Shown piece after piece: positions 1,995 through 61,427 of a DNA stretch of 62,259 nucleotides (positions are counted from its first letter, which is position 1; each line of letters begins with the position of its first letter). Location of the stretch: assembly GCA_027592925.1 (NCBI GenBank), contig JAQCJO010000005.1, forward strand, positions 1-62,259. The letters run 5' to 3'. A model generated the notes under the pieces. The model was not told the origin of the DNA. It did not search any database and saw nothing but the letters and a program-made list of their open reading frames with translations. Source of the stretch: Actinomycetota bacterium. Lineage in GTDB: Bacteria > Actinomycetota > Acidimicrobiia > Acidimicrobiales > Ilumatobacteraceae. The translations under genes were made by a program, and so were the position numbers.

Positions 1995-2028
1995 ATTCAA
2001 TCCCCTCAACATCACATCAGGAGAAGTT

Positions 2029-3513: not shown

Positions 3514-3543
3514 AAGTTTTTCGTTTTCAACAAGGGGAGAGTT

Positions 3544-6247: not shown

Positions 6248-6249
6248 TC

Positions 6250-34433: not shown

Positions 34434-34469
34434 CCACGTGATGACCCAAATGAAATTGAGCCGTAGGAT

Positions 34470-35495: not shown

Positions 35496-35524
35496 AAACA
35501 TGGGTCCTAATCTGGGTAGTAATC

Positions 35525-36016
35525 ATGTCTGATTTACGGTTTTCGCATCTCGATCCAGCAGGCAACGCCCGCATGGTTGACGTCACGCCAAAAGAGGCAA
35601 CGCATCGTCGGGCGATTGCGCGTTGCAAAGTATTTATGAAACCCGAGACAACTGCTGCGATTGCCAATCGCGAAGTGAAGAAGGGCGACGTGATTGCAGT
35701 CGCTCGAGTGGCCGGCATTCAAGCCGCCAAGCGCACAAGCGACATGATTCCGCTGTGTCATCCGCTGCTCATCGGCGCAGTGCATATCAACTTTGAAATC
35801 GCCGACGACTTCATTGCTATCGAGGCTCAAGTCGACACCGTCGACCGCACAGGAGTCGAGATGGAGGCCCTGCATGCGTGCAGCGTGGCCGCCCTGACTA
35901 TCTATGACATGTGCAAGAGCGCCGATAGGGCCATGGTGATCGGAGAGTTGACGCTGTGGGAGAAGTCGGGTGGCCGCCAGGGCCTGTATCGTCGCGAAGA
36001 TCAGCAAACTCAATAG
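35525..36016 (+). CDS. moaC: Cyclic pyranopterin monophosphate synthase MoaC
   Basis: MVDVTPKEATHRRAIA, AAKRTSDMIPLCHPL, DRTGVEMEALHACSVAALTIYDMCKSADRAMVI. Confidence 0.96.
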   Translation: MSDLRFSHLDPAGNARMVDVTPKEATHRRAIARCKVFMKPETTAAIANREVKKGDVIAVARVAGIQAAKRTSDMIPLCHPLLIGAVHINFEIADDFIAIEAQVDTVDRTGVEMEALHACSVAALTIYDMCKSADRAMVIGELTLWEKSGGRQGLYRREDQQTQ

Positions 36017-45092: not shown

Positions 45093-45764
45093 CTACAAAA
45101 ATTTGATTGCGGCAATCACAACCGCAACGAGTGCAACGACAACGGGAATTGCGCGCTTGAGTATTGGTGCACCCGCAGTGCCGAGTAGATCGAGTGGCGC
45201 AACTTCGGCGCTCTCAATCTTGCGAATTTCTGGGCTTGCAGCAGCAACTGTTGTTGCCGCTGGCGCAGTAGTTGCCGCTGGCGCAGTAGTTGCCGCTGGC
45301 GCAGTAGTTGCCGCTGGCGCACTGGCAATCAACTGGTTGAGGTTTTCTGAAAATTGTTTCAGCAGTTTGTCGCTCACGTCGGCAAGTGCGCCACGACCAA
45401 ACTGTGCGACTTTGCCCGAGATGGTGAGGTCGGTGACCACGGTGCATTTTGTGGATGTTGGTGTGATCGAGGTGAGTTGGGCGGTGATAATTGCAGATGC
45501 TGTGCCCTTACCCGTGGTGTCGCGACCTTCGCCTTTGAGTGAAGCGGTGTGGGCTAGATCATCGCGCGACACAAAACTTGCCTGACCCTTGAACTGAGCA
45601 ACGATCGGACCGACCTTGATCTTGACTTGACCGCGGTATGTATCACCCTCAACTTCGGTAAGTTGCGCACCTGGCAAGCATGGCGCAATTCGCTCGAGGT
45701 CGGTGAGAATTACCCATGCGTCATTGACTGGCACATTGACGATGAACTCGTGATTCAGATCCAT
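45093..45764 (-). CDS. coxG: CoxG-like SRPBCC protein with C-terminal TM anchor
   Basis: FIVNVPVNDAWVILTDLERIAPCLPGAQLTEVEGDTYRGQVKIKVGPIVAQFKG; (APAATT)n linker; TM VVALVAVVIAAIKFL. Confidence 0.9.
   Translation of the reverse strand: MDLNHEFIVNVPVNDAWVILTDLERIAPCLPGAQLTEVEGDTYRGQVKIKVGPIVAQFKGQASFVSRDDLAHTASLKGEGRDTTGKGTASAIITAQLTSITPTSTKCTVVTDLTISGKVAQFGRGALADVSDKLLKQFSENLNQLIASAPAATTAPAATTAPAATTAPAATTVAAASPEIRKIESAEVAPLDLLGTAGAPILKRAIPVVVALVAVVIAAIKFL
45253..45324. repeat. Four tandem 18-bp units (GTTGCCGCTGGCGCAGTA) inside coxG
   Basis: Three identical units 45253-45306 plus a fourth diverging in its last 3 bp; encodes the APAATT linker. Confidence 0.95.
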
Positions 45765-46402
45765 TACACACTTCTCCGAGATTCGACAATAAGTTTGCTT
45801 GCTTGTTCGAGGTCTTCAATCGTGTCGATGTCGATTGCTGATCCTGTACAGGATACTTCACTGACAAGTTGATGATGAGAGCGCAATAAGTTGCGCGCAC
45901 CTTCGTCGCCTGTTGTTGGCAAGTGCGACCACATCTCTGCATGCAACTTGACGGGGTTGCCACGCTTGGTGTCGTATGTCGCTACTGCAAGCGGGGAAGT
46001 GCTGCTTGCAACACGTTGCCAAGCACTCGGCGGAACGCACGGTTGATCGGCGAGACCGATGACCACTGCCTGCGCGCCGAGCGATGCGGCAAACTCAATT
46101 GCGCAGTGCACCGAACTTGCCATGCCGGTCGACCAATTGGGATTGTTGATCGAATGTGGCAGACCCCATTTTGTGATGGATGCCTGCGCCTCGTCACTGA
46201 GGGCAAAATCGAGCGGCAGTGGCGTTTTGCCGGTCACCACGACCACTGGCCCGATGCTGGCTTCGATGGCTGATTCGATCGCCCAGTGGTACACAGGGCG
46301 CCCCTGAGCGACGCTCAGCAGCTTGTGGGTCGATCCAACGAATCGGGTTCCACTGCCTGCAGCGAGCACTACAGCAACGGTGAGAGACCCTGTCATACCC
46401 AA
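45764..46402 (-). CDS. MobA/MocA-like nucleotidyltransferase (molybdenum cofactor cytidylyltransferase)
   Basis: VAVVLAAGSGTRFVGSTHKLLSVAQGRPVYHWAI, VIGLADQPCVPPSAW; coupled to coxG. Confidence 0.85.
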   Translation of the reverse strand: MGMTGSLTVAVVLAAGSGTRFVGSTHKLLSVAQGRPVYHWAIESAIEASIGPVVVVTGKTPLPLDFALSDEAQASITKWGLPHSINNPNWSTGMASSVHCAIEFAASLGAQAVVIGLADQPCVPPSAWQRVASSTSPLAVATYDTKRGNPVKLHAEMWSHLPTTGDEGARNLLRSHHQLVSEVSCTGSAIDIDTIEDLEQASKLIVESRRSV

Positions 46403-46454
46403 TGTCTACTTGGGTTTTGGAGGATCCCCAAATATTACAATTAGATGACATAAA

Positions 46455-46472
46455 ATGTTACTGAAGTGACAT
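46455..46472. promoter_or_regulatory. Near-perfect palindrome ATGTTACTGAAGTGACAT in a divergent promoter region
   Basis: Arms ATGTTACT / AGTGACAT (7 of 8 complementary) between divergent mocA-like and NlpC/P60 genes. Confidence 0.45.
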
Positions 46473-46543
46473 ATGGCGAGTTATCGCCCCCGCGAACTCC
46501 ACCGCCCCCCGGTTGAGTCAGGGCCAGCCTGTCACCCCAAACC

Positions 46544-47200
46544 ATGACCACAACACATGTCTATACGCATATTCGCAGGTATGTCTGTTTAGGGCTTGTT
46601 GCGGCAGCTTTTGTGATGTTTGGATTGCCTCAACAAGTATCTGCCAAACCAATGCCACAAAGTCAAGAGCGAGTGATCGCACAGTCCGCACAAGAAGCGG
46701 TAGCGCTTTTTGACTCGTTTACTGAACTCAGTGCGGCAGACCGGAGCGATGTTTTCTCTGCGCTTGTTGCCGACATTGCAAGACAGGCAGCAGTTTTTTT
46801 GGGAGTAGATGTGCGATTGACGCAACAGTCTTGGTTGCGTGCAGATATGGCGCACAAACTTGCATTGATGAATGATCTCACTCAACTTGGTGTGCCCTAC
46901 AAAATTAATGCTGCAACCGAAAACGTTGCTTTTGATTGTTCGGGACTCGTTGCATTTGCATGGGGAAAAGCAGGGGTTGCACTCTCGCGTGGGTCCTCAG
47001 CACAATTTGCAAGCGCCACACTTGTGAAAGTCGAAGAAGCGCAGCCCGGTGACTTAATTTGGCGTCCTGGTCACATTTCGATGTACTTGGGAGTGCCAAG
47101 CGCTGTTTTGCAAACGCCATATTTGGGCAGAAGTGTTGAATTGCAAAAGATGAACGACCGCATTACTTCTTGGGTGAAATACGCAAATCCATTGATATGA
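46544..47200 (+). CDS. Secreted NlpC/P60-family peptidoglycan hydrolase
   Basis: Signal peptide; VAFDCSGLVAFAWGKAGVALSRGSSAQF, AQPGDLIWRPGHISMYLG. Confidence 0.9.
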   Translation: MTTTHVYTHIRRYVCLGLVAAAFVMFGLPQQVSAKPMPQSQERVIAQSAQEAVALFDSFTELSAADRSDVFSALVADIARQAAVFLGVDVRLTQQSWLRADMAHKLALMNDLTQLGVPYKINAATENVAFDCSGLVAFAWGKAGVALSRGSSAQFASATLVKVEEAQPGDLIWRPGHISMYLGVPSAVLQTPYLGRSVELQKMNDRITSWVKYANPLI

Positions 47201-47213
47201 ATTTTTTGTAATT

Positions 47214-48032
47214 TTATTTGTGAATTGGTCCGTCACTATCGCGTAGCGATGGAGCACCGCGGCCCGTGCGCCGCGCAATAATTTCTCCAACAATTGAAAT
47301 TGCTGTTTCTTCTGGAGTTCTCGCACCGACGTCGAGACCAATTGGAGACATGAGTCGAGACAGTTGATCTGAGCTTGTAATGTCTACCTCAGCAAGTCGC
47401 TCAAGCCGCTTGGCGTGTGTTTTACGGCTGCCCATTACACCGATGTAACCAACGTTGGTGGCAAGAGCACCTTGCACTGCAGGCACATCAAACTTTGGGT
47501 CGTGGGTCAAAATACACACTGCATCGCGCGAGGTCAGCGCTGCGCCGCGCTGAGTAAATAACGGTGCTGGCCATGAGACCAAAACTTCGTCGGCCATTGG
47601 AAAACGACGGCGAGTAGCAAAAACTTCGCGGGCGTCGCACACGACCACGTAATAGCCGAGCACTTTTGCAACCTTGGCAAGCGCGGCAGTGAAATCGACG
47701 GCACCAAAAATCCACATTGTTGGTGGTGGAGAAAATGCTTCGATAAAAACACGAACGGTTGGCGTGTCTATTAAGTCTTCTGGAGTTGTTTGACCCTGCG
47801 GACCATAGTGACGCACGCCTGTGCGTCCGGCTTCAACTTCGCCCAGTGCATCGCGAGCAACGACACGATCGAGTTCGCTATCACCAAGCGTGCCAACTGC
47901 ATCTGTCGACGGCGAGACGAGCATCGTTGCGCCAACATGTGGACCATTGATGACAGTGACGAGTGCAACCGGAATATTGGAGCGCACTCGTTCGGCAAAA
48001 ATGGGGTAAAGCGATACTGGTTGGAGCGACAT
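47214..48032 (-). CDS. XdhC/CoxI family protein (XdhC_CoxI + Rossmann domain)
   Basis: GPHVGATMLVSPSTDAVGTLGDSELD; AKVLGYYVVVCDARE..LTHDPKFDVPA..YIGVMGSRKTHAKRLERL. Confidence 0.9.
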   Translation of the reverse strand: MSLQPVSLYPIFAERVRSNIPVALVTVINGPHVGATMLVSPSTDAVGTLGDSELDRVVARDALGEVEAGRTGVRHYGPQGQTTPEDLIDTPTVRVFIEAFSPPPTMWIFGAVDFTAALAKVAKVLGYYVVVCDAREVFATRRRFPMADEVLVSWPAPLFTQRGAALTSRDAVCILTHDPKFDVPAVQGALATNVGYIGVMGSRKTHAKRLERLAEVDITSSDQLSRLMSPIGLDVGARTPEETAISIVGEIIARRTGRGAPSLRDSDGPIHK

Positions 48033-48035
48033 GAT

Positions 48036-48353
48036 TTACCAGGTGAGGGGTGCGATGAAAAGATGAATAATGCCGCCGCATGTGAGACCCACTGCAAATG
48101 CTTCGTCATCTGAGTAACCAAACTTGACAAGACGGGGTTGTTTGTCGCCGCGCAATATCTCGAGTGCCTCAGCAACCACTGCGCCTTCAACGCATCCGCC
48201 ACTCACCGAACCAACAACTTCGCCGTCTTCATTGACAGCCATTGCGGCACCGGGATCGCGCGGGCCAGAGCCTTCGATGTCGACTACGCGAGCAACTGCA
48301 ATCTGTTTGCCTGCCTGCTGCCAGCGCTCGATGTCGTTCAGTAGTTCACGCAT
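48036..48353 (-). CDS. Short XdhC/CoxI family protein
   Basis: RVVDIEGSGPRDPGAAMAVNEDGEVVGSVSGGCVEGAVVAEA..GLTCGGIIHLF. Confidence 0.9.
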   Translation of the reverse strand: MRELLNDIERWQQAGKQIAVARVVDIEGSGPRDPGAAMAVNEDGEVVGSVSGGCVEGAVVAEALEILRGDKQPRLVKFGYSDDEAFAVGLTCGGIIHLFIAPLTW

Positions 48354-48362
48354 AGGTATCAG

Positions 48363-49499
48363 TCAATCGTGAGAAATCACTCGAGTGAGATGCTCGAGAG
48401 CCTGTATGGAATGGCCCTCTACAAAGTCGTCCACATAGGGCAGTGCTGCAGCCATGCCCCGAGCAAGTGGCGCATAACCAGGAGTGACTTTGAGTGGGTT
48501 GACCCACACAACCCTGAAGGCAACTCGTTGTAAGCGCTGCATTTGTTCGGCAAGAACCTCCGGGCCACCTCTGTCCCAACCATCGCTGAGCACTACGACA
48601 ATTGCGCCGCGAGCCATTCCGCGCACGCCCCATGTTGCATTAAATTTGCGCAGGCTTTCGCCGAGTCGTGTGCCTCCGCTCCAGTCGGGCACTTGTGCTG
48701 CAGCGCGAGTAAGTGCTTTGTCCGGGTCGCGGCTATTGAGCTCTTTTGTTAGCCGAGTGAGCCTTGTGCCAAACGTAAATGCCTCTACGCGTTGCCTGCC
48801 GACAACGGCTGCGTGCATAAAACGAAGAAGCGCTCGCGCGTATGGCTCCATGCTGCCCGAGATATCGAGAAGCACAACGAGTCGACGTTGGCGCTCACTT
48901 GGTTTGCGCCAGTGCAAACGAGCAGGCTCGCCACCAAACGCGAGAGATGCGCGAACAGTGCGACGCAAGTCGTGTCGAGAACCACTGCGTTTTGCATGTG
49001 TGAGGCGTAGTGATTGTCGGGGAGGTCCAGCGAGACGAAGTTGATGCATGAGTCGCTGCGATTCGTGCAGTTCTTCGTCGGTGTATTGAGCAAAATCTTT
49101 GCTGCGCAATGATTCGTTTGCGGTAAAGCGCATTTGCAATGTCTGATTTTCATCTTGCGCATCAGCATTATTTTCGTCTGGACCATCTTCGTCGTCAAGT
49201 AACAGCGTGATCTTTTGTGGCGGGCCGTCTTCGTCAACGTCTGTCGCATTACGGCGTTCCCAAAAAACTGCAAATGCTCGGTCGAACAGTTGCTGATCTT
49301 CTGGTCGATGCACCAATGTGGCCCGCCCAGCCCAATACACATCGTCACGTTTGGTCATCGACACAACATCGAGTGCTTGCACAAACGTAATCACCGAATC
49401 GATAGGCACGCTGATGCCCGCGCCGCGCAACACACGCGCAAACGAAACTGCCATTTCGTCTGCCGATGAGCCAGCAGACTGCTTCAGCGCTGTTGACAT
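48363..49499 (-). CDS. coxE: VWA-domain protein, CoxE-like
   Basis: FARVLRGAGISVPIDSVITFVQAL; VVLLDISGSMEPYARALLRF (MIDAS). Confidence 0.92.
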   Translation of the reverse strand: MSTALKQSAGSSADEMAVSFARVLRGAGISVPIDSVITFVQALDVVSMTKRDDVYWAGRATLVHRPEDQQLFDRAFAVFWERRNATDVDEDGPPQKITLLLDDEDGPDENNADAQDENQTLQMRFTANESLRSKDFAQYTDEELHESQRLMHQLRLAGPPRQSLRLTHAKRSGSRHDLRRTVRASLAFGGEPARLHWRKPSERQRRLVVLLDISGSMEPYARALLRFMHAAVVGRQRVEAFTFGTRLTRLTKELNSRDPDKALTRAAAQVPDWSGGTRLGESLRKFNATWGVRGMARGAIVVVLSDGWDRGGPEVLAEQMQRLQRVAFRVVWVNPLKVTPGYAPLARGMAAALPYVDDFVEGHSIQALEHLTRVISHD

Positions 49500-49511
49500 A
49501 ACTAGTGCGCT

Positions 49512-50435
49512 CTAGTTATGCGACAAGCCGCGGTCGAAGGCTTGTTTCACAAGATCGGCAATGCCCGTTTCGCGCACACGTTCGTGATCTTCGCGGTACT
49601 TAAGCACTGTGCCAAGCGTTGCGGCAACGCTGGTCTCATCGAGTTCGAGAATTCCGAGTTGACCAAGCGCGGTTGCCCAATCGATAGTTTCGGCAACGCC
49701 AGGTGGCTTGTACAAATTGAGACCACGCATTGCTTCAACTGCTGCAGCAACTTGCCGTGCAAGTGACTCGGCGATTTGCGGAACACGTAGCCGAACGATG
49801 GCAACTTCGCGCTCAAAATTTGGATGTTCAACCCAGTGATACAGACATCGACGCTTCAGTGCGTCGTGCACATCGCGCGTGCGATTGGAAGTAAGCACCA
49901 CGATTGGCGGGGTAGTCGCACTAAATGTGCCCAGTTCGGGAACTGTGATTTGAAAATCGGAAAGAATCTCGAGGAGATATGCCTCAAACTCGTCGTCGGC
50001 TCTGTCGATTTCGTCGATCAAGAGCACTGCAGGAGTAGTGCGATTGTCGATGGCGCGCAACAGTGCGCGCTTGATCAAAAACCTTTCGTTGTACAACTCG
50101 CTTTCAAGGAGCGAAGTGTTTTTGGACTTTGCCTCACCAGATGCTTCGGCTGCGCGCAGGTGCAACAACTGACGCGAGTAGTCCCAGTCGTACACAGCCT
50201 GCGAGGCATCGATGCCTTCGTAACACTGCAGACGAATGAGTTCACCGCCTGTCATTGCCGCAATCACTTTTGCTAATTCTGTTTTTCCAACACCTGCTTC
50301 ACCCTCCAATAAGAGAGGGCGCTTGAGCGACAACGCCAAAAAAACTGCAGTCGCGAGGCCTTCATCGGCCAAATAGCTTTGCCCACCGAGTGCGTTTCGT
50401 ACTTGGGCCACCGATGTGAGTGCGGGCAAACTCAT
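49512..50435 (-). CDS. coxD: MoxR-family AAA+ ATPase, CoxD-like
   Basis: LLLEGEAGVGKTELAKVIA (Walker A), LLIDEIDRADDEFEAYLLEIL (Walker B). Confidence 0.94.
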   Translation of the reverse strand: MSLPALTSVAQVRNALGGQSYLADEGLATAVFLALSLKRPLLLEGEAGVGKTELAKVIAAMTGGELIRLQCYEGIDASQAVYDWDYSRQLLHLRAAEASGEAKSKNTSLLESELYNERFLIKRALLRAIDNRTTPAVLLIDEIDRADDEFEAYLLEILSDFQITVPELGTFSATTPPIVVLTSNRTRDVHDALKRRCLYHWVEHPNFEREVAIVRLRVPQIAESLARQVAAAVEAMRGLNLYKPPGVAETIDWATALGQLGILELDETSVAATLGTVLKYREDHERVRETGIADLVKQAFDRGLSHN

Positions 50436-50459
50436 TGACTCACTGTAGAGGCACGAGGG

Positions 50460-51881
50460 TTACGAGTCGAAGCCCAAACCCAGCCGGTCGAGGGTGCGCA
50501 GCCAGAGGTTGCGTTTGCCCGTGCGGTCTTCACGACTCAGTGCCCAGCGCGTTGTCTGAATGCCGATAAAGCGAAATGGCTCGGGTGGAAACGGGAGCGG
50601 CTTGCTTTGCACGAACTTAGTTTGAGTGGCTTGGGTCTTGCGTCCGTCGAGCAAATCGAGCATGACTTCGGCACCAAAACGCGAACTTGCCACGCCAAGG
50701 CCGGTGTAGCCGATTGCGTATGCAACTCGGTTGCGCATTGCTTGGCCCCAAAACACGCTGTAGCGACTGCATGTATCGATGGCGCCACCCCACACGTGTG
50801 AAAACTTGACGCCTTCAAGTTGGGGGAAAGTTTCGAAGAAGTGTTGCGACAACTTTGCCCAACTCTCTGGACGAGATTCCAAATCAACACTCATTTTTCC
50901 ACCGAAGAAATACATGGCGTCGTAGCCACCCCAGAGAATGCGATTGTCGGCAGTGAGTCGGTAATAGTGAAACTGATTGGAGATGTCGGATAAACCTTGC
51001 CGATTTTTCCAACCCAAACTGTCCAGTTGCTGTGCGTTCAGTGGCTCGGTAACGAGGCAGTAGTCGTACACCGGTGCGATGTAGTTGTGCATGCGCTTGA
51101 GTAGCGGTTTGAAGGCGTTGGTGGCGAGCGCAACATGTTTGGCTTTAATGTCAGCCAATGCTGTTTCGATTGAGACGCCGCTTCCCGCATAGTCGAGACC
51201 AGTTGCTCGCGTGTCTTCATAGATGCGCACGCCAAGACTTTCGGCCGCACTTTTGAGCCCCCACACGAGGCGTGCTGGATCAACGAGTGCGGCGGTGTCT
51301 TTGCACCACATGCCGCCAGTAAAAATTGGAGATGCAACTTCGCGTTGCACTGCTTGTTGATCGAGCCATTCAACTTTGTGACCCAACTCGAGCAGTTGTT
51401 CATAGTCTTCACGCATCTCGTCGAGATAGTTGGCAGAATGACGCGTGCTCGCAATATCAATCACACCGTTGCGCTCAAAGTCGCAGTCGATGTTGTAGCG
51501 ACGAATTGCTGCCTCAATTTGATTGAGGTTTTCAAGCCCCAAATCTTCAAGCAGACCAACTTCTTTGGGGAAGCGTTGTTGCGCATTGGCTATGCCGTGC
51601 GTGAGGCTCGAATTCATAAAACCGCCATTGCGACCGCTCGCTGCTGATCCAACTTCGTGTGAGTCGATCAGGATGACATCGGCTGACGGATTGCGTTCTT
51701 TGGCCAAGATTGAAGTCCAAAGGCCCGTGTAGCCACCACCAACAATGCACAAGTCGCACGAGTCGTCGCGCACGAGCATCGGATTGGAGTCGGGTTCGTC
51801 GACATCTTCCATCCAATACGGATACGGCTCAGCATCAGCGATCGCGTCCAGAAAGCGTTCGTCTTCTTGATACCCGGCCAT
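50460..51881 (-). CDS. FAD-dependent oxidoreductase (DAO / gamma-glutamylputrescine oxidase-like)
   Basis: CDLCIVGGGYTGLWTSILAKERNPSADVILIDSHEVGSAASGRNGGF; QFHYYRLTADNRILWGGYDAMYFFGG. Confidence 0.9.
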   Translation of the reverse strand: MAGYQEDERFLDAIADAEPYPYWMEDVDEPDSNPMLVRDDSCDLCIVGGGYTGLWTSILAKERNPSADVILIDSHEVGSAASGRNGGFMNSSLTHGIANAQQRFPKEVGLLEDLGLENLNQIEAAIRRYNIDCDFERNGVIDIASTRHSANYLDEMREDYEQLLELGHKVEWLDQQAVQREVASPIFTGGMWCKDTAALVDPARLVWGLKSAAESLGVRIYEDTRATGLDYAGSGVSIETALADIKAKHVALATNAFKPLLKRMHNYIAPVYDYCLVTEPLNAQQLDSLGWKNRQGLSDISNQFHYYRLTADNRILWGGYDAMYFFGGKMSVDLESRPESWAKLSQHFFETFPQLEGVKFSHVWGGAIDTCSRYSVFWGQAMRNRVAYAIGYTGLGVASSRFGAEVMLDLLDGRKTQATQTKFVQSKPLPFPPEPFRFIGIQTTRWALSREDRTGKRNLWLRTLDRLGLGFDS

Positions 51882-51940
51882 GGGTTTTCTCACCACCTAA
51901 CAGCACCAAGTTAGCACCAGCCGCAGTAGCGTTTTCGGCT

Positions 51941-52687
51941 ATGGATCTTGGAATTAGCACGCGAACTGCTGCGGTTGCTGCTGGTTCTGCAGGTTTAGGT
52001 TTTGCAACTGCGCAGGCACTTGCTAATGAGGGAGTGCGAGTAGTTATCTGTAGTCGCGATGCTGTGCGTGTGGCCGAAGCCGCAAAAGCTATTGGTAACG
52101 GTTGCATTGGCGTCGTTGCGGATGTTTCGACCGGTGAGGGCGGTGCGAAATTTGTGCGCGAAGCCATTGCGATACTTGGACACATCGATATTTTGGTGGC
52201 AAACGGTGGGGGACCACCAGCGGGAAACTTTGCATCAACAGATTTAGATGCGTACCCAGCCGCTCTTGAACAAAACTTGTTGTCAGTGATTGGTATGTGC
52301 AAAGAAGCATTGCCCGGCATGCAGGAGCGCAAATGGGGCCGCATCGTTGCTATTACGTCAGTCGCCGTGCGTCAGCCAATGGCAAACTTAATTTTGTCTA
52401 ACACTGCACGCGCTGGGGTGACTGGATTTTTGAAAACAGTTGCACGTGAAGTTGCACAAGATGGGGTCACGGTCAACACCGTGCAACCTGGCATTCATGC
52501 AACCAGTCGAATCACGCAGTTGTATGGAGCGACACCGGATGCGTCGGCGCTCGGTATTCCTGCCGGGGTTGCAGGAAGCCCTGCAGACTTTGGTCAGGTA
52601 GTTGCGTTTTTGTGTGGTGAGGGTGCAAAGTTTGTGACCGGTGCAAGTTTGCAAGTAGACGGTGGATCATATGGAGGGTTGTTGTAA
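51941..52687 (+). CDS. SDR-family protein with non-canonical catalytic motif
   Basis: MDLGISTRTAAVAAGSAGLGFATAQALA; VANGGGPPAG; active-site region SVAVRQPMANLILSNTARAGV (SNTAR in place of YxxxK). Confidence 0.88.
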   Translation: MDLGISTRTAAVAAGSAGLGFATAQALANEGVRVVICSRDAVRVAEAAKAIGNGCIGVVADVSTGEGGAKFVREAIAILGHIDILVANGGGPPAGNFASTDLDAYPAALEQNLLSVIGMCKEALPGMQERKWGRIVAITSVAVRQPMANLILSNTARAGVTGFLKTVAREVAQDGVTVNTVQPGIHATSRITQLYGATPDASALGIPAGVAGSPADFGQVVAFLCGEGAKFVTGASLQVDGGSYGGLL

Positions 52688-52983
52688 TGCTGCAGCATGT
52701 CGTGGCAATCACGTGGAATAATCAGGTGCCACCGAACTATGCAGAAACCGTTTCAGTTGTGCTGCAAGAAATGGCATCGCATATCTCTTCGGTGCGTGAA
52801 TATCATTGCGGGCCCGACTTGGGTGTGTCGACTGCTGTTAATGCCGACTACTTGATCGTGGCAACGTTTGACGATGTTGATGGATGGCGTCAGTACGACG
52901 AAGATGCATCACACAACGAGATTCGCGCCAAGTACTTCAAGCCATACATTGCGTCGCGAGCATCGGCTCAAATAACTTATTAA
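52687..52983 (+). CDS. Dabb (stress-responsive alpha/beta barrel) domain protein
   Basis: MLQHVVAITWNNQVPPNYAETVSVVLQEMASHISSVREYHCGPDLGV..YLIVATFDDVDGWRQYDEDASHNEI; TAATG overlap with SDR. Confidence 0.85.
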   Translation: MLQHVVAITWNNQVPPNYAETVSVVLQEMASHISSVREYHCGPDLGVSTAVNADYLIVATFDDVDGWRQYDEDASHNEIRAKYFKPYIASRASAQITY

Positions 52984-53975
52984 ATACTTTCATTGCGCAA
53001 AATCGTCCAGAATTCTCCCGAATTCAGCATTGACGGGTACATGCGTTCGATCCTGAGCTTGATCAGCCCAAGATCATAAAGATCTTGAATGATCGATTGA
53101 AATGTGTCGGGTGTGAAGTACCAAGCATGCTCATCTTTGATAACGCCTTTGCTTGTCCGATAAATTTCCATCGCAATGTTTAGTCGATCAATTCGATCTG
53201 AGTTTGGGAACTCTGGATTGTGGGCAGGGTCGCCGTGGTTTTCTTTCCAGTGCTCTATTGGATCGTTGTGGGTCATTAAAAGTCGAGACTCGAGTAGTGA
53301 CTCTGCTGTGTGGCTTGCTCTTTTATCGAGATGAGCAGCCAGCACATCGGTGATGGTCGATGGTGTCATGAAATGATCAAAGCAATATCGGTGATCTGGA
53401 ATCAAGACGAAGTACCGGCCACCTTCTATAAGAATATGGTCAACCTGATTCAGGTGATGCACCAAGTCCGGCTGATGTTCGATGGCGTGGCTGGAGAGCA
53501 CGACGCCAAAATGTTCATCTACACAGGAAAGATCTGATGGCTGTGCAACCCAAGTAATGTCGGGAACCTCTTCGGGGTTCATACCCACGGCTGGCGCGCG
53601 CTCACGCAATTCATCAGTGGTGTACACATCAACATATTTGACGCGTGGCCCCTTTACCAACGGCCGAGCGTATGGACCAATCTCTAATGTTTGCATTCCT
53701 ACTGGGATAAGTTGGACGAAAGCAACCCTGTCGTACACTTGGTGGCATCTTCGACCTTGTTTTTTGCCCACTGTTTGATAGTGATCCCATAACTCGTTAT
53801 CGCTGAGTGACGCGATCTCGGGATAAATCGTTCGGTATACCCATGCTTCAAATTCGAGTGGAATCGCATCAATCTCTCGTGCACGACCCTTTGGTGGAGG
53901 AAGAAAAGCCGACAAGATGCGCCTTCGCAATGCTCGCAACACACGGGCAGGAGAAAATCGAGAGGTAACTTCCAT
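52980..53975 (-). CDS. SAM-dependent methyltransferase-like protein
   Basis: TLEIGPYARPLVKGPRVKYVDVYTTDELRERA..FGVVLSSHAIEHQPDLVHHLNQVDHILIEGGRYFVLIPDHRYCFDHF. Confidence 0.8.
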   Translation of the reverse strand: MEVTSRFSPARVLRALRRRILSAFLPPPKGRAREIDAIPLEFEAWVYRTIYPEIASLSDNELWDHYQTVGKKQGRRCHQVYDRVAFVQLIPVGMQTLEIGPYARPLVKGPRVKYVDVYTTDELRERAPAVGMNPEEVPDITWVAQPSDLSCVDEHFGVVLSSHAIEHQPDLVHHLNQVDHILIEGGRYFVLIPDHRYCFDHFMTPSTITDVLAAHLDKRASHTAESLLESRLLMTHNDPIEHWKENHGDPAHNPEFPNSDRIDRLNIAMEIYRTSKGVIKDEHAWYFTPDTFQSIIQDLYDLGLIKLRIERMYPSMLNSGEFWTILRNESI

Positions 53976-53979
53976 TGGG

Positions 53980-54948
53980 TCAGACGCTACTTGGTCGGTG
54001 GCGCTCCCATTTACTAGCGAGCCAACAGGACACGCCTACATAGAGCCAGCCAGCCAAAATGTCGGCAACATAGTGCTCGCCGAAATAGACAAGACAAAGA
54101 GCCATACTTGCTGGCAATGCAAGCGAGATGACTCGCAACCACTTTGGCATGTATGGGAAGAAGAACAACACAACCAAGAGTGCACACGCCGCATGCAACG
54201 AAGGCATTGCTGCATACGGATTGGTGATAGCAGTACCGCGGTCAAACACTTTGCTCACCGACTTAATGCCCATGTGCGACCATGCGCGAGCGGTGATGCG
54301 CTGTAGCGGCGCAATATAACCCTGTTTGGCTGCGAGCCAAGGTGGCGCAACTGGAAATGCTGCAAATGTGGCGCATGACAAAAAGAACAAGATGCTCAGT
54401 CGGCGCACATAACGCACCCACATGTCACGATTAAACCACCACTACAACACTGCAACTCCAGGCGGAAAAATAAAGTGCGTCATGTAGGTGACAGCCAGCG
54501 GGTATTCGTACCAACTGAGAACTTTCGAAATGTTGAGGTGCTGTTGCATCCACACATTGGGATCTGTGCCAAAAAAGAGTGCGCGGTCAAAGTTGCGTAC
54601 CGCCAAATAGGAGATGGGGCGACCCAGTTGGTCGGAAAGACCACGGCTGTATTCGTATGCAAACAGCATTCCGGTAAAGATTGACCAGTCGCGCAACATC
54701 GCAAATTGGTCTTTCCACGACCTACCAACGTTGGCAAAAATAAATGCGACGAGTACCCAACCTGTGACCGCAATGCGATCAATGGGTAATCCAAAACGCT
54801 TGATCGACCATGCAAACAGCGCTAGATACAGCGCAATAGCAACTACACGCGTGCGTGTTGGTTTACGCCGAAGAAAGGTTGTTACTGACAGATTTACGAG
54901 TTTAGTGAAATCGTTATGCCGACGCTTTTTCGAGTGCGCGACGCACAA
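53980..54948 (-). pseudogene. PAP2-superfamily membrane protein interrupted by an in-frame TAG (upstream fragment 54442-54948, downstream fragment 53980-54423)
   Basis: Minus strand reads ..GVAVL TAG WWFNRD MWVRYVRR.. in one frame; stop at 54442-54444; downstream part has the PAP2 motifs YAAMPSLHAACALLVV and GEHYVADILAGW. Confidence 0.75.
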
Positions 54949-55738
54949 GCACTTTGGCTAAGTGCACACGGTATTCGCTCGATGCGTTTAAGTCATCTTG
55001 TGGCTCGGCCTCATTGGATGCGAGTTGGGCAGCGTCGGCAACTGATGCACCCGACTTGAGCGCTGCTGAGACACTTGTTGCCAAGATTGGGGTGCTGCCC
55101 ATGTTGACAAGTGCAACGCCAGATGCGTCTTTGCTGCGCCATGCAGCCACACCAACGATTGCCCAGTCTTGGGCACGGCGATTGAACTTCTCGAAACCCC
55201 ACTTTGCACCATTCATTTTTGGCACACGAATTTCGGTGAGCATTTCGTCTGGCTGGAGTGCACTTTCAAGGAAGCCTTTGTAGAAGTCGGCTGCGGCCAT
55301 GAGTCGTTCGCCCTTCGGGCCTTGCACAACGTACGTCGCACCGAGTGCGAGAGTTGTTGCAGGAAGATCGCTTGCCGAATCGGCGTGAGCAAGTGATCCA
55401 CCAATGGTTCCGCGATGGCGAACCTGAGCGTCACCCACATAACCAGCAGCATGGGCGAGCAGTGGCACTTCTTTGAGGACAAGCGCCGATTTCTCTACAT
55501 CCATGTGGCGAGTCAGTGCACCGATTGCAATGAAGTCTCCACCGTCTTTGATGTAAGAAAGGTCTTTGATGCGACCGATGTCGATGAGCATCGCTGGCTG
55601 GGCCAGGCGAAGTTTCATTAACGGAATAAGGCTGTGTCCGCCTGCCAAAAACTTGGCTTCGTCGCCGTATTGTCCGACGAGCGAAATTGCTTCGGCTGCC
55701 GAAGATGCTCGCTTGTAATCAAATGCTGCTGGTATCAC
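54914..55738 (-). CDS. coxM: FAD-binding medium subunit of molybdenum hydroxylase (CoxM-like)
   Basis: FDYKRASSAAEAISLVGQYGDEAKFLAGGHSLIPLMKLRLAQPAMLIDIGRI; RHRGTIGGSLAHADSASDLPA. Confidence 0.93.
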   Translation of the reverse strand: MIPAAFDYKRASSAAEAISLVGQYGDEAKFLAGGHSLIPLMKLRLAQPAMLIDIGRIKDLSYIKDGGDFIAIGALTRHMDVEKSALVLKEVPLLAHAAGYVGDAQVRHRGTIGGSLAHADSASDLPATTLALGATYVVQGPKGERLMAAADFYKGFLESALQPDEMLTEIRVPKMNGAKWGFEKFNRRAQDWAIVGVAAWRSKDASGVALVNMGSTPILATSVSAALKSGASVADAAQLASNEAEPQDDLNASSEYRVHLAKVLVRRALEKASA

Positions 55739-55765
55739 GATGTGCTCCCTCGAATTATTTCGTAG

Positions 55766-58153
55766 TTACTTTGCTTGTGCCGCTGATTGAATTGCGCGCC
55801 ATACGGTTTGTGGTGATGCTGGCATTGGCATCTCGGTAACTCCAAGCCCGGACAATGCATCAATAATTGCGTTGATTACGGTGCTTGCTGCACCGATGGT
55901 GCCAGCCTCTCCGATGCCTTTGACTCCGAGTTGATTTGTCGGTGACGGTGTGACGGTGTGAGCAGTGGTAATCGATGGAACATCACTTGCTGCGGGCACC
56001 AAGTATTCAGCAAGTGTTGTTGTTTTCAAGTTGCCATCAGAGTCATAGACGGCCTCTTCGAATAGCGCTTGTGCAAGGCCCTGAATTACACCGCCGTGTA
56101 CCTGACCATCGACGATGAGTGGGTTGATCTGTACACCGCAGTCATCAACGGCAACGTATTTGAGAATTTCGATCTTGCCAGTTTCGGTATCAACTTCAAG
56201 CACGCACATGTGCGTACCAAATGGCCACGAAAAGTTTGGTGGGTCATAGCTGTACTGCGCTTCGAGGTTTGGCTCAAGGCCATCTGGAAGATTGTGCGCC
56301 GTGAATGCTGCAAAAGCAATTGCCGCCATGGGGACTGCGCGATCTGGCGAACCTTTGACGCTAAACACGCCACCAGCAAACTCGAGGTCATCGGCAGAAC
56401 ACTCCAATTGATGTGCGGCTATGAGTCGAGCCTTGTCGATGACTTTGTCACACGCACCAGCAACGGCGACTCCACCAACGGCGAGTGAACGTGAGCCGTA
56501 GGTATCGAGACCAAGTGGTGAGATGGCGGTGTCGCTGTGCAACACATCGATATCTTCTTGCGGGATACCAAGTTTTTCGGATGCAATCATGGCCCACGAT
56601 GTTTCGTGACCCTGACCGTGTGGCGATGTGCCAGTGACAACTTGCACTTTGCACGTTGGCAAGATGCGCACTGTTGCTGCTTCCCAGCCACCAGCGCCAT
56701 AGTCGAGTGAGGCGAGCACGCGCGATGGTGCAAGACCGCACATCTCAAAGTACGAAGTCATGCCAATACCGAGACGCTTCTTTGCTCCGGCGACATTTTG
56801 TTTGGCTTGCTTTGTTCGAATTCCCACATAATCCGCAAGACCTGCTGCTTTTTCGGCGGCCTGCAAGTGGTCGCCAGAGTCGTATGTAAGCCCGCTAAAT
56901 GCTGTGTACGGAAACTGCTCTTTTTGAATGAAGTTGCGCTTGCGCAACTCGAGTGGGTCGATCTTCATTTGGCGCGCGAGTGCGTCCATTGCGCATTCAA
57001 TTGCATAAGTGGCCTCGGGACGACCAGCGCCGCGATATGCATCGGTTGGCGTGAGCGTTGTGAAGATGCCGTCGCAACTGAAGTCGTAGGCAAGTGGAAT
57101 GTCGTATACGCCTGCATACAAGAATGCACCCAAGATGGGCACGCCAGGCGTGACCAACTGCAGGTATGCACCCATGTCGGCCTTGATGCGCACGCGTACC
57201 GCAGTGAGTTTGCCACTCTTGTCGGCTGCGAGTTCAACGTATTGCACTTGACCACGACCGTGAATGGTGGCCATCGAGTTTTCACTGCGCTCTTCGACCC
57301 AGCGCACAGGCAAATTGTGCATCCGAGCAAGCGCCATGCACAACAACTCTTCCGCATACACATCAAGTTTCGAGCCAAAGCCACCACCAACACTCGGTGC
57401 AACCACACGCACCTGATGCTCGGGAATACCGAGTGTGAGCGCGGCCATCACTTTGAGGATGTGAGGTATCTGGGTAGAGGAGTACAACGTGATGTCGCCA
57501 CCAAATGGTTGAGGCACGGCGGCAACCGCGCGTGGCTCCATGGCCATTGGCAACAACCGTTGCTGCACATAGCGCTCGCTAACTTTGAACGCAGCCTTTT
57601 GAAATGCGTTCTCAACGCAACCTTCGGTGGCCTCGATCTTTAAGTTCCAGGTATAACTCTTGTTCGTTCCCAAATCTTCGTGGATGATGTTGGCATCACT
57701 GAGGGCTTCTTCAACATCGACAACTGCTTTTAAAACCTTGTATTCCACGTCAATGAGGTCGAGTGCATCGCGCGATGCACTCTCGCTAGTTGCAAGCACC
57801 GCAACCACGCCGTCTCCGACGTAACAAACCTTGCTCGCTGCAAGTGGGAAGTGTGGCGGGTTCTTCATGTCTGGAGTTACTGGCCACGCACATGGCATTG
57901 GACCTGCCCACTGAGACTGCAACTCTGCTCCGGTGTAAACAGCAATGACACCTGGTGAAGCTTTTGCTGCAGCAGTATCAATGCTCACAATTTTCGCGTG
58001 CGCGTGTGGAGACCTCAAGATCGAAAGATGCAATGCACCGGGCAAATTGAGATCGTTGGTGAACTTCGCTTCACCAGTTAAGAGGGCAGGATCTTCGCGA
58101 CGCAGTTGTCGCGTACCGATCACAGTATTTTGGCGATTCTCTGTCATGGTCAT
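55766..58153 (-). CDS. coxL: Molybdenum-binding large subunit, form-II CoxL-like (first copy)
   Basis: 795 aa; APSVGGGFGSKLDVYAEE, DAYRGAGRPEATYAIE (AYRGAGR at 57020-57040), GTSPHGQGHETSWAM, GVKGIGEAGTIGA. Confidence 0.93.
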   Translation of the reverse strand: MTMTENRQNTVIGTRQLRREDPALLTGEAKFTNDLNLPGALHLSILRSPHAHAKIVSIDTAAAKASPGVIAVYTGAELQSQWAGPMPCAWPVTPDMKNPPHFPLAASKVCYVGDGVVAVLATSESASRDALDLIDVEYKVLKAVVDVEEALSDANIIHEDLGTNKSYTWNLKIEATEGCVENAFQKAAFKVSERYVQQRLLPMAMEPRAVAAVPQPFGGDITLYSSTQIPHILKVMAALTLGIPEHQVRVVAPSVGGGFGSKLDVYAEELLCMALARMHNLPVRWVEERSENSMATIHGRGQVQYVELAADKSGKLTAVRVRIKADMGAYLQLVTPGVPILGAFLYAGVYDIPLAYDFSCDGIFTTLTPTDAYRGAGRPEATYAIECAMDALARQMKIDPLELRKRNFIQKEQFPYTAFSGLTYDSGDHLQAAEKAAGLADYVGIRTKQAKQNVAGAKKRLGIGMTSYFEMCGLAPSRVLASLDYGAGGWEAATVRILPTCKVQVVTGTSPHGQGHETSWAMIASEKLGIPQEDIDVLHSDTAISPLGLDTYGSRSLAVGGVAVAGACDKVIDKARLIAAHQLECSADDLEFAGGVFSVKGSPDRAVPMAAIAFAAFTAHNLPDGLEPNLEAQYSYDPPNFSWPFGTHMCVLEVDTETGKIEILKYVAVDDCGVQINPLIVDGQVHGGVIQGLAQALFEEAVYDSDGNLKTTTLAEYLVPAASDVPSITTAHTVTPSPTNQLGVKGIGEAGTIGAASTVINAIIDALSGLGVTEMPMPASPQTVWRAIQSAAQAK

Positions 58154-58162
58154 GATCGTCTC

Positions 58163-58618
58163 CTACTTCTTCGCCGCAGCGAGCACTGACTTCACAATGT
58201 TGTGGTATCCGGTGCAGCGACAGAGGTTGCCCTCGAGGCCGAGTCGGACTTCTTCTTCTGTTGGATTTGGATTTTCCTTAAGTAAACCAATTGATGCCAT
58301 CACCATTCCCGGTGTGCAATATCCACACTGCAGGCCGTGGTTCTCCATAAATGCTTGTTGCATTGGATGCATCACGCCGTCTTTGCTCAGACCTTCGATG
58401 GTTGTCACCTTGCCACCATCGGCCTGTGCGGCAAGCATTGTGCAACTCTTGACTGCTTCGCCATCGAGATGAATGGTGCAAGCGCCACAACTCGATGTAT
58501 CACAACCGATGTTTGTGCCGGTGAGTTGCAGTCGATCGCGCAAAAAATGTACGAGCAGTGTGCGAGGCTCTACGTCTTTTTCTTGTCGAGTTCCATTGAC
58601 AGTGATACTGACCTTCAT
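58163..58618 (-). CDS. coxS: [2Fe-2S] small subunit of molybdenum hydroxylase (CoxS-like)
   Basis: [24 protein letters not shown] and [31 protein letters not shown]; start ATG 58618. Confidence 0.95.
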
Positions 58619-58693
58619 GAGATCCCCCCTGTGCGCGAATGTCGTGGTGGAGATCATCATGCCCCATTGAGAGAGGTTTGTAAAACGGAAGAG

Positions 58694-59068
58694 TTACTTG
58701 ACGGTAAGTGTTGCCTTCAAACTTGGTACTCTGGCGCAGGTAATGGAGAATACGCCGCGCTGTGGGAGCGGTATGGTCTTCAAACCCTTGGCAGGTACAA
58801 CTACCAGGGTGGCGCCAACTTTGATGCGGTAGGCAACACTGTCGGTATTTCTTAGGGTGAGCGTGCCGCCTTTGAGTATCACAACTGAGGCTCGACCAAA
58901 TACTCCATCTTTGATTATCAAGTTGGTGGACGCTACCCGCGGTGTGCTTGCGGCATCAACGTGCGCAGGTGGGCTCATCACAACGGGGCACAACGTGAGA
59001 GCAAAGAAAACAAGTGCTGTGCGCAATACGCGCCGTTGGGCTTGTCGCGGGTCGGCAGACAAATTCAT
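58694..59068 (-). CDS. Secreted cupredoxin-like protein with degenerate copper site
   Basis: Signal-type N-term; NLIIKDGVFGRASVVILKGGTLTLRNTDSVAYRIKV...GVFSITCARVPSLKATLTVK. Confidence 0.7.
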   Translation of the reverse strand: MNLSADPRQAQRRVLRTALVFFALTLCPVVMSPPAHVDAASTPRVASTNLIIKDGVFGRASVVILKGGTLTLRNTDSVAYRIKVGATLVVVPAKGLKTIPLPQRGVFSITCARVPSLKATLTVK

Positions 59069-59096
59069 ACAACAACAATACGGTTAATAGCCCTTG

Positions 59097-61379
59097 CTAG
59101 TTGGCCGACTGAATTGCGCTCCACACGCGTTCTGGTGTGGCCGGCATGTCGATGTGACGCACACCCAAGTGAGTGAGCGCATCGATTACTGCTGATTGCA
59201 CTGCAGGAGTTGAGCCAATGGTGCCCGACTCGCCGATGCCTTTCGCGCCAAGTGGGTTGCGGGGTGTTGGTGTCTCCATGTGGATTACCTCAAAGCTTGG
59301 CAACTCTGCAGCAGAAATAAATGCGTAGTCAGCAAAGTTGGAAGTGATCGGGTTGCCGTCAGTGTCATAGCGAACTTCTTCAAGGAGTGCTTGTGCAGCA
59401 CCTTGGCCGATGCCACCATGTATTTGGCCATCCAAAATAAGCGGGTTGATTACTCGGCCAGCATCGTCGCACGCAACGTGTCTGATCAAGGTGACTTTGC
59501 CTGTTTCGGTATCAACTTCAACAACTGAAACGTGAGCCCCGAAAGGAAATGTTGCACCGTTGGATACGAAATTTGATTCTTGAACTAAGCCACCGTCAGT
59601 TGCAAGTGCCGACGAAATGTCGGCCCATGTTTTTGCGACTGCTGGAGTGCCTGCCACATGGAATGCAGCGGTGAATTTGTCGAATACCACGTCGTCTTCG
59701 TTGGCCTCAAGCAAACGTGCTGCGTGTTTGCGTGCTTGCTCAACGAGTTCTTTGGATGCCTGGTGCACTGCGGCGCCACCTTGTTGTAACGAGCGTGAGC
59801 CCATTGTTCCACCACCAGTAGGCACCAAGTCTGTGTCGCCCCACACAACATCGATCATGTCCATGGCGATGCCGGTCTCATCACTCGCCAACATTGACCA
59901 CGCGGTTACATGACCCTGTCCGTGCGGTGAAGTACCGGTGTACACAATGGCGCGACCGTTTGGAAGGATTTCAACTTTGCCAAACTCGCCTTTCGAATTT
60001 CCTGCTGTGATTTCGACATACACGCTGATGCCAATGCCGAGTTGTTTGGTATTGCCACTTGCACGACGAGCAGCCTGGTCTTTTCGAAGTTGTGCATAGT
60101 TGGACGCTTCGAGAACTTTGTCGAGCGCTCCTTCAAAATCGCCTACGTCGTACGTTTGTCCAATCGATGTGGTGAAGGGCTCGAGAAACTTTGGAATCAA
60201 GTTGATGCGTCGCACTTCGGCAGGGTCTTTGCCAAGTTTGAGTGCAAACAAATCCATTGCTCGCTCAATCGCTGCTGTTGCCTCTGGGCGTCCTGCGCCG
60301 CGGTAGGCAACCATTGGTGTGGTGTTGGTTGCGACCGACGTGGTGCGCACTTCAATCACAGGAATGTCGTAAACACCAGAGGCCATTGGGCGAGTCATGT
60401 ACGGGGCAAGGATTGCACCAATATCAACCCACGCACCCGAATCTTGTAGAGCATGTAATTGGTATGCGGTCACTTTGCCCGTACGAGTTCCACCAATAGT
60501 GATGTATTGAATTTGGCCTCGGCCATGACCGAGTGCGACCATCGATTCGCTGCGCGTTTCAGTCCAACGCACCGGTTTGCCAACTTGCTTTGCAATTCGT
60601 CCTAACAACAGATCTTCTGGGTACGCATCGATCTTTGCTCCGAAACCACCGCCGACATCTGGTGTGATCACGCGAACTTGGCCAGCTTCGAGTGCATTGA
60701 CTTTGAGGATTGCATCGCGTGCGCCCTGTGCGTGCTGTGTCGACAACCACTGCACCAAGCGACCGTTGTCCCATGCGGCTGCGGCACCACGCACCTCAAG
60801 GGGACAAGGTGCAACACGCTGATTGACGAACCGACCCTTGACGACAACTTCGCAATCGGCGAACAATGCATCGCCCGTGTTGTCTGGCATGCCGATGGCG
60901 GTCGACTCAAAGACAACGTTGCTGCCAACTTCTTCGTAAATAAGAGTTGATGAAGTCATTGCCTGCTCAACATCGATAAGAATTTCGAGTGCGTCGTAAT
61001 CAACGATGACGCGCTCTGCTGCGTCTTCGCCTTGGTTTGCAAGTTCGGTAAGCACTATCGCAAGTGGTTCGCCAACGTAACGAACTTTTCCGCTTGCAAG
61101 AAGTGTTCGCTTGGCCATCGGATTAAACGAAGCTTCAACAGGTTGCAGCCCAAGATCTTGTGCGGTGTAGATAGCAACGACGCCTGGCATTGTGAGGGCT
61201 TCAGAAACATCGATGCTGGTGATGTTGGCGTGGGCAACAGTTGAACGAACAAAAGTTGCATGCACCGCTCCGACCAACAATGGTTCGTCGCGCAAGTCGT
61301 CTACATATACGCCACCAGTTGTAAGAAACTTTGGGTCTTCTTTACGAAGAACGCGGTTACCTAAAATACTTCCAGCCAT
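59097..61379 (-). CDS. Molybdenum-binding large subunit, form-II CoxL-like (second copy)
   Basis: MAGSILGNRVLRKEDPKFLTTGGVYVDDL, TPDVGGGFGAKIDAYPED, VAYRGAGRPEATAAIE (60288-60308), GTSPHGQGHVTAWSM, GAKGIGESGTIGS; GAGGAG RBS before 61379. Confidence 0.93.
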   Translation of the reverse strand: MAGSILGNRVLRKEDPKFLTTGGVYVDDLRDEPLLVGAVHATFVRSTVAHANITSIDVSEALTMPGVVAIYTAQDLGLQPVEASFNPMAKRTLLASGKVRYVGEPLAIVLTELANQGEDAAERVIVDYDALEILIDVEQAMTSSTLIYEEVGSNVVFESTAIGMPDNTGDALFADCEVVVKGRFVNQRVAPCPLEVRGAAAAWDNGRLVQWLSTQHAQGARDAILKVNALEAGQVRVITPDVGGGFGAKIDAYPEDLLLGRIAKQVGKPVRWTETRSESMVALGHGRGQIQYITIGGTRTGKVTAYQLHALQDSGAWVDIGAILAPYMTRPMASGVYDIPVIEVRTTSVATNTTPMVAYRGAGRPEATAAIERAMDLFALKLGKDPAEVRRINLIPKFLEPFTTSIGQTYDVGDFEGALDKVLEASNYAQLRKDQAARRASGNTKQLGIGISVYVEITAGNSKGEFGKVEILPNGRAIVYTGTSPHGQGHVTAWSMLASDETGIAMDMIDVVWGDTDLVPTGGGTMGSRSLQQGGAAVHQASKELVEQARKHAARLLEANEDDVVFDKFTAAFHVAGTPAVAKTWADISSALATDGGLVQESNFVSNGATFPFGAHVSVVEVDTETGKVTLIRHVACDDAGRVINPLILDGQIHGGIGQGAAQALLEEVRYDTDGNPITSNFADYAFISAAELPSFEVIHMETPTPRNPLGAKGIGESGTIGSTPAVQSAVIDALTHLGVRHIDMPATPERVWSAIQSAN

Positions 61380-61427
61380 TGCCGCTCCTCTGTGGGGAAT
61401 AGCCACAAGGTTAGTGATCGAAGAGCG

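What the first reader, a model, noticed from the sequence alone, without database searches (positions are those of the whole stretch)
45093..61379. Molybdenum-hydroxylase island: one S and M subunit, two form-II large subunits, near-complete Cox-type maturation set
On the minus strand the sequence shows CoxL2, cupredoxin-like, CoxS, CoxL1, CoxM, then (after intervening genes) CoxD (MoxR), CoxE (VWA), two XdhC/CoxI, a MocA-like transferase and membrane-anchored CoxG. Both large subunits carry AYRGAGR, the motif of form II (CODH-like) enzymes. Neither has AYxCSFR, the motif of verified form-I CO dehydrogenase. The S-L-M order also fits form II. CO is therefore not a safe substrate assignment. 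A full maturation machine serving a form-II enzyme with a duplicated catalytic subunit suggests an uncharacterised oxidative pathway.
Basis: partly seen in the sequence, partly recalled or inferred. Interest (0 to 1): 0.72.

Follow-up and report, generated by a model that had tools for sequence, protein, structure and literature searches.

The report
Molybdenum hydroxylase with swappable catalytic subunits
A freshwater bacterium carries one electron-transfer module for a molybdenum enzyme together with two different, anciently separate catalytic subunits, an arrangement kept at one chromosomal spot across the whole bacterial order; it is probably a membrane-linked oxidase for two unknown organic substrates and almost certainly not the cell's carbon monoxide enzyme.

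Summary
On the minus strand lie L2, a small cupredoxin-fold protein, S, L1, M, then MoxR (CoxD), CoxE, two XdhC-family proteins, a MocA-like transferase and membrane-anchored CoxG. Both L proteins carry AYRGAGR and neither has the copper-binding Cys.

Three corrections:
(1) "Duplicated" is misleading. L1 and L2 are 41% identical and fall in two old clades. L1 sits in the canonical form II clade (S-L-M order). L2 sits in a separate clade whose order is L-S-M.
(2) The locus is not a one-off. eno-divIC-L2-S-(L1)-M-MoxR-CoxE-XdhC-XdhC-MocA-CoxG-gppA is syntenic across Acidimicrobiales. L2-S-M alone, S-L1-M alone and the combined form all occur.
(3) The genome has a separate form I CO dehydrogenase (AYRCSFR, M-S-L order) on another contig. 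It occurs in only 27 of 201 family genomes, against 151 for L2 and 77 for L1.

Best reading: one S-M electron-transfer pair serves two interchangeable catalytic subunits with different organic substrates, and electrons pass to quinone at CoxG. Subunit sharing is inferred from natural presence/absence; substrates are unknown. The cupredoxin-fold protein has lost its copper ligands and occurs only in sister species. Verdict: a new variant of a known kind, of moderate interest.

The parts
59097..61406 (-). CoxL2: large Mo-binding subunit, L2 clade (L-S-M order), AYRGAGR; conserved neighbour of eno/divIC across the order
   Evidence: Pfam MoCoBD_1/2 and Ald_Xan_dh_C; tree; active-site columns; AlphaFold model pLDDT 80.7 and PDB matches to XO-family large subunits, TM about 0.89
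58694..59068 (-). cupredoxin-fold secreted-type protein without the canonical His/Met copper ligands; only in sister species
   Evidence: no Pfam hit; homologues in 3 sister loci only; low-confidence model (pLDDT 58) matches Cupredoxin_1 4hcf at E 5e-4
58163..58660 (-). CoxS: 2x[2Fe-2S] small subunit with all eight Cys
   Evidence: Pfam Fer2, Fer2_2; CDTSSCGAC...C, CGYC...CRC read directly
55766..58153 (-). CoxL1: large Mo-binding subunit, canonical form II clade (S-L-M order), AYRGAGR
54914..55738 (-). CoxM: FAD-binding medium subunit
   Evidence: Pfam FAD_binding_5 and CO_deh_flav_C; AGGHS and TIGGS motifs
49512..50435 (-). CoxD-like MoxR AAA+ ATPase
   Evidence: 52% to OM5 CoxD, 57% to Microvirga form II MoxR
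48363..49499 (-). CoxE-like VWA protein
   Evidence: PF05762, 219.8 bits
48036..48353 (-). XdhC/CoxI N-terminal domain only protein
   Evidence: PF02625, 87.9 bits; 48% to OM5 CoxI over 86 residues
47214..48032 (-). XdhC-family protein (weak N domain plus Rossmann XdhC_C)
   Evidence: PF13478, 140.6 bits; PF02625, 39.1 bits
45764..46402 (-). MocA-like NTP transferase (MCD formation, inferred)
   Evidence: PF12804, 90 bits; TIGR03310 81 bits, below its cut-off of 186
45093..45764 (-). CoxG with C-terminal membrane helix
   Evidence: PF06240, 64 bits; hydrophobic C-terminal tail
33204..36016 (+). moeA-moaA-moaC cofactor genes; only genomic hits for PF03453 and PF06463

Best explanation
[quoted passage not shown] One S-M pair (two [2Fe-2S] clusters plus FAD) serves two alternative catalytic subunits. 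S2M2(L1)2 and S2M2(L2)2 assemble from the same pool, and each L brings its own pocket and so its own organic substrate, most likely an aldehyde or N-heterocycle. CO is unlikely, because the Cu-binding Cys is absent from both. The cofactor is made by MoeA/MoaA/MoaC (encoded in the same window), converted to MCD by the MocA-like protein, and sulfurated and inserted by the XdhC proteins with MoxR/CoxE. Electrons run Mo, Fe-S, FAD, then to quinone at the membrane through CoxG. Shown: gene content, intact catalytic residues, two separate clades, order-wide synteny, and natural L1-only, L2-only and combined operons on one S-M tree. Inferred: S-M sharing, substrate class, electron path.
For: Families and intact cofactor residues. 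Both L retain the OM5 Gln240 and Glu763 equivalents and the GGGFG, GQGH and GSRS segments, and neither has Cys388. L1 and L2 lie in different supported clades. Among 72 deduplicated loci the gap arrangement is 41 L2-S-M, 22 L2-S-L1-M and 9 S-L1-M (one of the nine at a contig end), intermixed on the S+M tree with 16 minimal switches, at least 7 forced by well-supported branches. So each L occurs beside the same S-M type without the other. A complete one-contig genome, G002, has S-L1-M plus maturation genes; its only match to L2 (E 2.6e-166) is in the range of L1 orthologues, so it appears to lack L2. Where both occur, L1, L2 and S-M distances correlate at 0.92-0.96, which means long co-inheritance. 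The genome's form I CODH is elsewhere with its own XdhC and CoxG, and the island persists in family genomes without form I. CoxG is a membrane anchor also for non-CO enzymes (PMC11962113).
Against: No protein-level proof that L1 and L2 use the same S-M. L1 almost always co-occurs with L2 in this family (69 of 77 genomes, hand count), which could also mean they act together. L2-like genes without a neighbouring S-M exist (loci L137, L141, L142, L146), so an L can be separated from this pair. Substrates are unknown, and no catabolic neighbour is conserved across the order.
Confidence: 0.58

Rival explanations
1. L1 and L2 pair with each other in one mixed heterohexamer (S2M2L1L2): one enzyme with two different active sites, perhaps acting in sequence on one substrate.
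For: Strong co-inheritance of L1 with L2 and S-M and L1-L2 co-occurrence in the family (odds ratio 4.4, p 0.0002, uncorrected for relatedness and genome completeness). The large subunits form the dimer contact in solved (LMS)2 enzymes (own knowledge).
Against: Many intact L2-S-M loci without L1, and S-L1-M loci without L2, including in a complete genome. L1 differs in presence even between sister species with 96% identical L2 (L037 against L039).
Confidence: 0.12
2. L1 and L2 oxidise the same substrate class as isoenzymes that differ in affinity or expression, so there is no second pathway.
For: All catalytic residues are shared, and only 10 aligned columns are invariant within each clade but different between them. 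Both are served by one maturation set.
Against: 41% identity and two separate old clades, and different histories outside the order (L1 with proteobacterial and haloarchaeal form II, L2 with Streptomyces) suggest different substrates.
Confidence: 0.17
3. The locus is a low-affinity aerobic CO dehydrogenase (form II CODH) as genome annotations would call it.
For: L1 scores highest against the CODH large-subunit model TIGR02416 (653.7 bits, below the 991 cut-off). A full Cox-type accessory set is present. CO use has been reported for Kyrpidia with only form II (PMC7248562).
Against: The Cu-ligand Cys is absent from both L. Form II activity is unresolved (PMC13240472), and isolates with only form II often show no CO uptake (PMC13203968). 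The genome has a separate form I CODH.
Confidence: 0.07

Closest known systems
Form II (CODH-like) coxSLM operons, e.g. Sinorhizobium pSymB and Microvirga ossetica plasmid
   Same: L1 is in this clade, with AYRGAGR and S-L-M order; the Microvirga operon has the same accessory set (two XdhC, CoxG, MoxR, VWA)
   Different: These have a single L; the window adds L2 from another clade before S, and a MocA-like gene in the operon
Form I Mo-Cu CO dehydrogenase (Oligotropha/Afipia OM5 coxMSLDEFG)
   Same: Same subunit architecture and homologous CoxD, CoxE, CoxF/I, CoxG
   Different: AYRCSFR and M-S-L order in form I; 35-36% identity of L; the window's host has a separate form I locus
Archaeal glyceraldehyde oxidoreductase (4zoh; NF041018-NF041020)
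   Same: Best NCBIfam hit for S, M and L2; SYRGAGR loop; heterotrimeric xanthine oxidase family enzyme
   Different: All scores below the curated cut-offs (L2 622.7/790, M 266.7/350, S 249.1/290); L2 only 35% identical and outside its branch
Quinoline 2-oxidoreductase (1t3q) and other N-heterocycle hydroxylases
   Same: Same fold and catalytic Gln/Glu; L2 model matches it well
   Different: 34-37% identity, separate branch, AYRGVGF loop

Membership tests
Form I Mo-Cu CO dehydrogenase | AYxCSFR loop with Cu-binding Cys388 | tested here: not met
   AYRGAGR in L1 and L2
Form I Mo-Cu CO dehydrogenase | M-S-L gene order and clade membership | tested here: not met
   Order L2-S-L1-M; both L outside the form I clade, SH-aLRT 100
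Form II (coxSLM, CODH-like) molybdenum hydroxylase | AYRGAGR motif | tested here: met
   Both L
Form II (coxSLM, CODH-like) molybdenum hydroxylase: L1 | S-L-M order and placement with reference form II CoxL | tested here: met
   S-L1-M; clade with S. meliloti and Microvirga, support 90
Form II (coxSLM, CODH-like) molybdenum hydroxylase: L2 | S-L-M order and placement with reference form II CoxL | tested here: not met
   L2 precedes S and falls in a separate clade
Form II (coxSLM, CODH-like) molybdenum hydroxylase | CO not the growth substrate / measured substrate | not testable with these tools
   needs enzyme assay
Xanthine oxidase family (Mo hydroxylase) | Mo-pterin domains, catalytic Glu, 2x[2Fe-2S] and FAD subunits | tested here: met
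Archaeal glyceraldehyde dehydrogenase (NF041018-20) | Scores above the curated cut-offs | tested here: not met
   L2 622.7/790, M 266.7/350, S 249.1/290
Xanthine dehydrogenase (NF043082, TIGR03196, TIGR02965) | Scores above the curated cut-offs | tested here: not met
   L1 404.8/780, L2 345.8/780 and others lower
Cox maturation set (CoxD, E, F/I, G, MocA) | Presence of each homologue beside the structural genes | tested here: met
   order-wide synteny
Blue-copper cupredoxin (58694-59068) | His-Cys-His-Met copper ligands | tested here: not met
   Only a Cys is kept, no His or Met at the ligand positions, in all four sequences
Blue-copper cupredoxin (58694-59068) | Cupredoxin beta-sandwich fold | tested here: inconclusive
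   Low-confidence model (pLDDT 58), best PDB match 4hcf at E 5e-4

The most novel reading that the evidence does not exclude
A modular molybdenum hydroxylase: one membrane-coupled S-M electron-transfer core that accepts two catalytic subunits from separate clades, so the cell (and, by gain or loss of L1, each lineage) changes substrate range by swapping only the large subunit. This would be conserved across an order of largely uncultured aquatic actinobacteria and would involve at least one substrate not yet known for the family.
Probability: 0.45. Interest if true: 0.62.

Novelty: new variant of a known kind. Interest (0 to 1): 0.42.

Why it matters
Form II CoxL genes are common in environmental genomes and are easily counted as CO oxidation, yet form II activity is unresolved (PMC13240472, PMC13203968). 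Here natural variation gives three operon types (L1 only, L2 only, both) on one S-M background in related genomes. That turns "what does form II do" into a testable subunit-swap question. The locus also warns against scoring acIV/Ilumatobacteraceae as CO oxidisers from coxL homologues: the real form I gene is patchy (27 of 201 genomes).

Tried and rejected
Recent duplication of CoxL: rejected, two clades.
Maturation genes merely serving the form I CODH: rejected as the main role. The island is kept where form I is absent, and the form I locus has its own XdhC-YHS and CoxG, with a second XdhC_C-MoxR-CoxE set on contig C42.
Glyceraldehyde or xanthine dehydrogenase: below the curated cut-offs.
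Cupredoxin as a redox partner: the ligands are lost, and it occurs only in sister species.
Substrate from neighbours: SDR, Dabb, the FAD amine-oxidase-type gene and the ABC-2 exporter vary between relatives, so no inference was made. The Streptomyces plasmid L2-like gene sits among aminodeoxychorismate and methyltransferase genes, not followed further.
A chimeric query (L2 carrying a 4zoh fragment) was used only to print the 4zoh sequence for the tree.
Full report
Observation. ORF listing, translation and Pfam confirm every gene named in the finding at its coordinates. CoxS has all eight Cys and CoxM has both FAD motifs (read). The two XdhC-family proteins are a short N-domain-only CoxI-like protein and a two-domain XdhC. 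The MocA-like protein matches the MocA model well below its cut-off (81 against 186 bits). Cofactor genes moeA, moaA and moaC lie in the same window at 33204-36016. The own-genome searches gave one hit each for MoeA_N and Mob_synth_C, both there.

Organism and context. Near-identical loci come from freshwater acIV/Ilumatobacteraceae MAGs; the host assembly is 1.66 Mb, 98% complete. Neighbourhood comparison over about 150 loci shows eno-divIC-L2-S-(L1)-M-MoxR-CoxE-XdhC-XdhC-MocA-CoxG-gppA across many families of the order, with insertions in places (an ABC-2 exporter between L2 and S, PAP2/SDR/Dabb/FAD oxidoreductase between M and MoxR). Three sister loci (L039, L040, L041) show intervals between L2 and S that fit the exporter, read directly in L039; in the window L2 and S are separated only by the cupredoxin-fold gene.

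Two catalytic subunits, two clades. A maximum-likelihood tree of 57 large subunits puts L1 with canonical form II proteins of S. meliloti, Microvirga and haloarchaea. L2 falls in a separate Acidimicrobiales clade that includes Streptomyces plasmid proteins. Form I CoxL, quinoline oxidoreductase and archaeal glyceraldehyde oxidoreductase lie outside both. L1 and L2 are 41% identical, and both are 35-42% identical to form I CoxL. Both keep the equivalents of OM5 Gln240 and Glu763 and the pterin-binding segments, and neither has Cys388 (residue roles from own knowledge of the OM5 structure). The L2 model (pLDDT 80.7) matches XO-family large subunits at TM about 0.89, CODH first, then quinoline and glyceraldehyde enzymes. 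Fold and motif therefore do not fix a substrate.

Natural swaps. After removing overlapping copies, 72 loci (the window itself not among them) divide into 41 L2-S-M, 22 L2-S-L1-M and 9 S-L1-M, of which one begins at a contig end. On the S+M tree these states need 16 changes, at least 7 of them forced by well-supported branches. A difference in L1 is visible between close sisters: L037 (L2 96% identical to the window) has S directly followed by M, while L039 and L041 keep L1. The S-M junctions of L037 and of L042/L044 differ, which suggests separate events. In the 22 combined loci L1, L2 and S-M distances correlate at 0.92-0.96, so where both are present they have been inherited together for a long time. 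In 201 family genomes L2 occurs in 151, L1 in 77 and form I CoxL in 27. By hand count 69 of the 77 L1 genomes also have L2; at least two exceptions are contig-end effects (L192, L193).

The separate CO dehydrogenase. Contig C39 carries M-S-L with AYRCSFR, an XdhC with a YHS domain and a CoxG. Contig C42 has a second XdhC_C-MoxR-CoxE set. Its CoxL is 99-100% identical to that of one same-genus genome and one of another genus, so recent transfer or a binning error is possible. Its GC matches the window (0.51-0.52 against 0.526). The island is kept where form I is absent, so its maturation genes most likely serve the form II enzymes.

Mechanism. Established: family, cofactor sites, accessory set, synteny, natural presence and absence of each L. 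Inferred: sharing of S-M, hydroxylation of two organic substrates, electron delivery to quinone at CoxG. CoxG anchoring of enzymes other than CODH is experimentally shown in Sulfolobus (PMC11962113), and CoxG delivery of CODH electrons to menaquinone is cited in PMC13240472. Substrate class is a guess from family neighbours (aldehydes, N-heterocycles).

Comparison with the known. Everything except the two-L arrangement is ordinary for form II operons; Microvirga has the same accessory set with a single L. The literature found treats form II activity as unresolved (PMC13240472, PMC13203968, PMC7248562), and none of the passages read reports two large subunits from separate clades sharing one S-M pair. 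Hence "new variant of a known kind", with interest moderated by the lack of a substrate.

Noticed in passing
53980-54948 (-): PAP2-family gene is split into two ORFs by a frameshift in the window; the nine relatives checked have one uninterrupted frame, so this is a recent pseudogene or a sequencing error.
   Followed up: yes
58694-59068 (-): Signal-peptide, cupredoxin-fold protein that has lost its copper-ligand His and Met; found only in three sister loci besides the window.
   Followed up: yes
L150 (G000:C39) 1502-6819: Form I CO dehydrogenase locus (M-S-L, AYRCSFR) with XdhC-YHS and CoxG in the same genome; CoxL is 100% identical to that of a genome of another genus.
   Followed up: partly
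33204-36016 (+): moeA-moaA-moaC cluster about 10 kb from the island; the only own-genome hits for PF03453 and PF06463.
   Followed up: yes
L039 12352-14944: ABC-2 type exporter (one ATPase, two permeases) sits between L2 and S in many relatives but is absent from the window.
   Followed up: partly
L181 1799-13036 (Streptomyces NBC_00467 plasmid): L2-clade large subunit (50% identical) in a neighbourhood with aminodeoxychorismate synthase, chorismate mutase and methyltransferases, which looks like natural-product biosynthesis.
   Followed up: no
L157 4482-11367 (Rubrobacter indicoceani plasmid): L1-like large subunit (55%) without adjacent S or M, beside biotin carboxylase, carboxyltransferase and 5-oxoprolinase-type genes; a possible substrate hint.
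   Followed up: no
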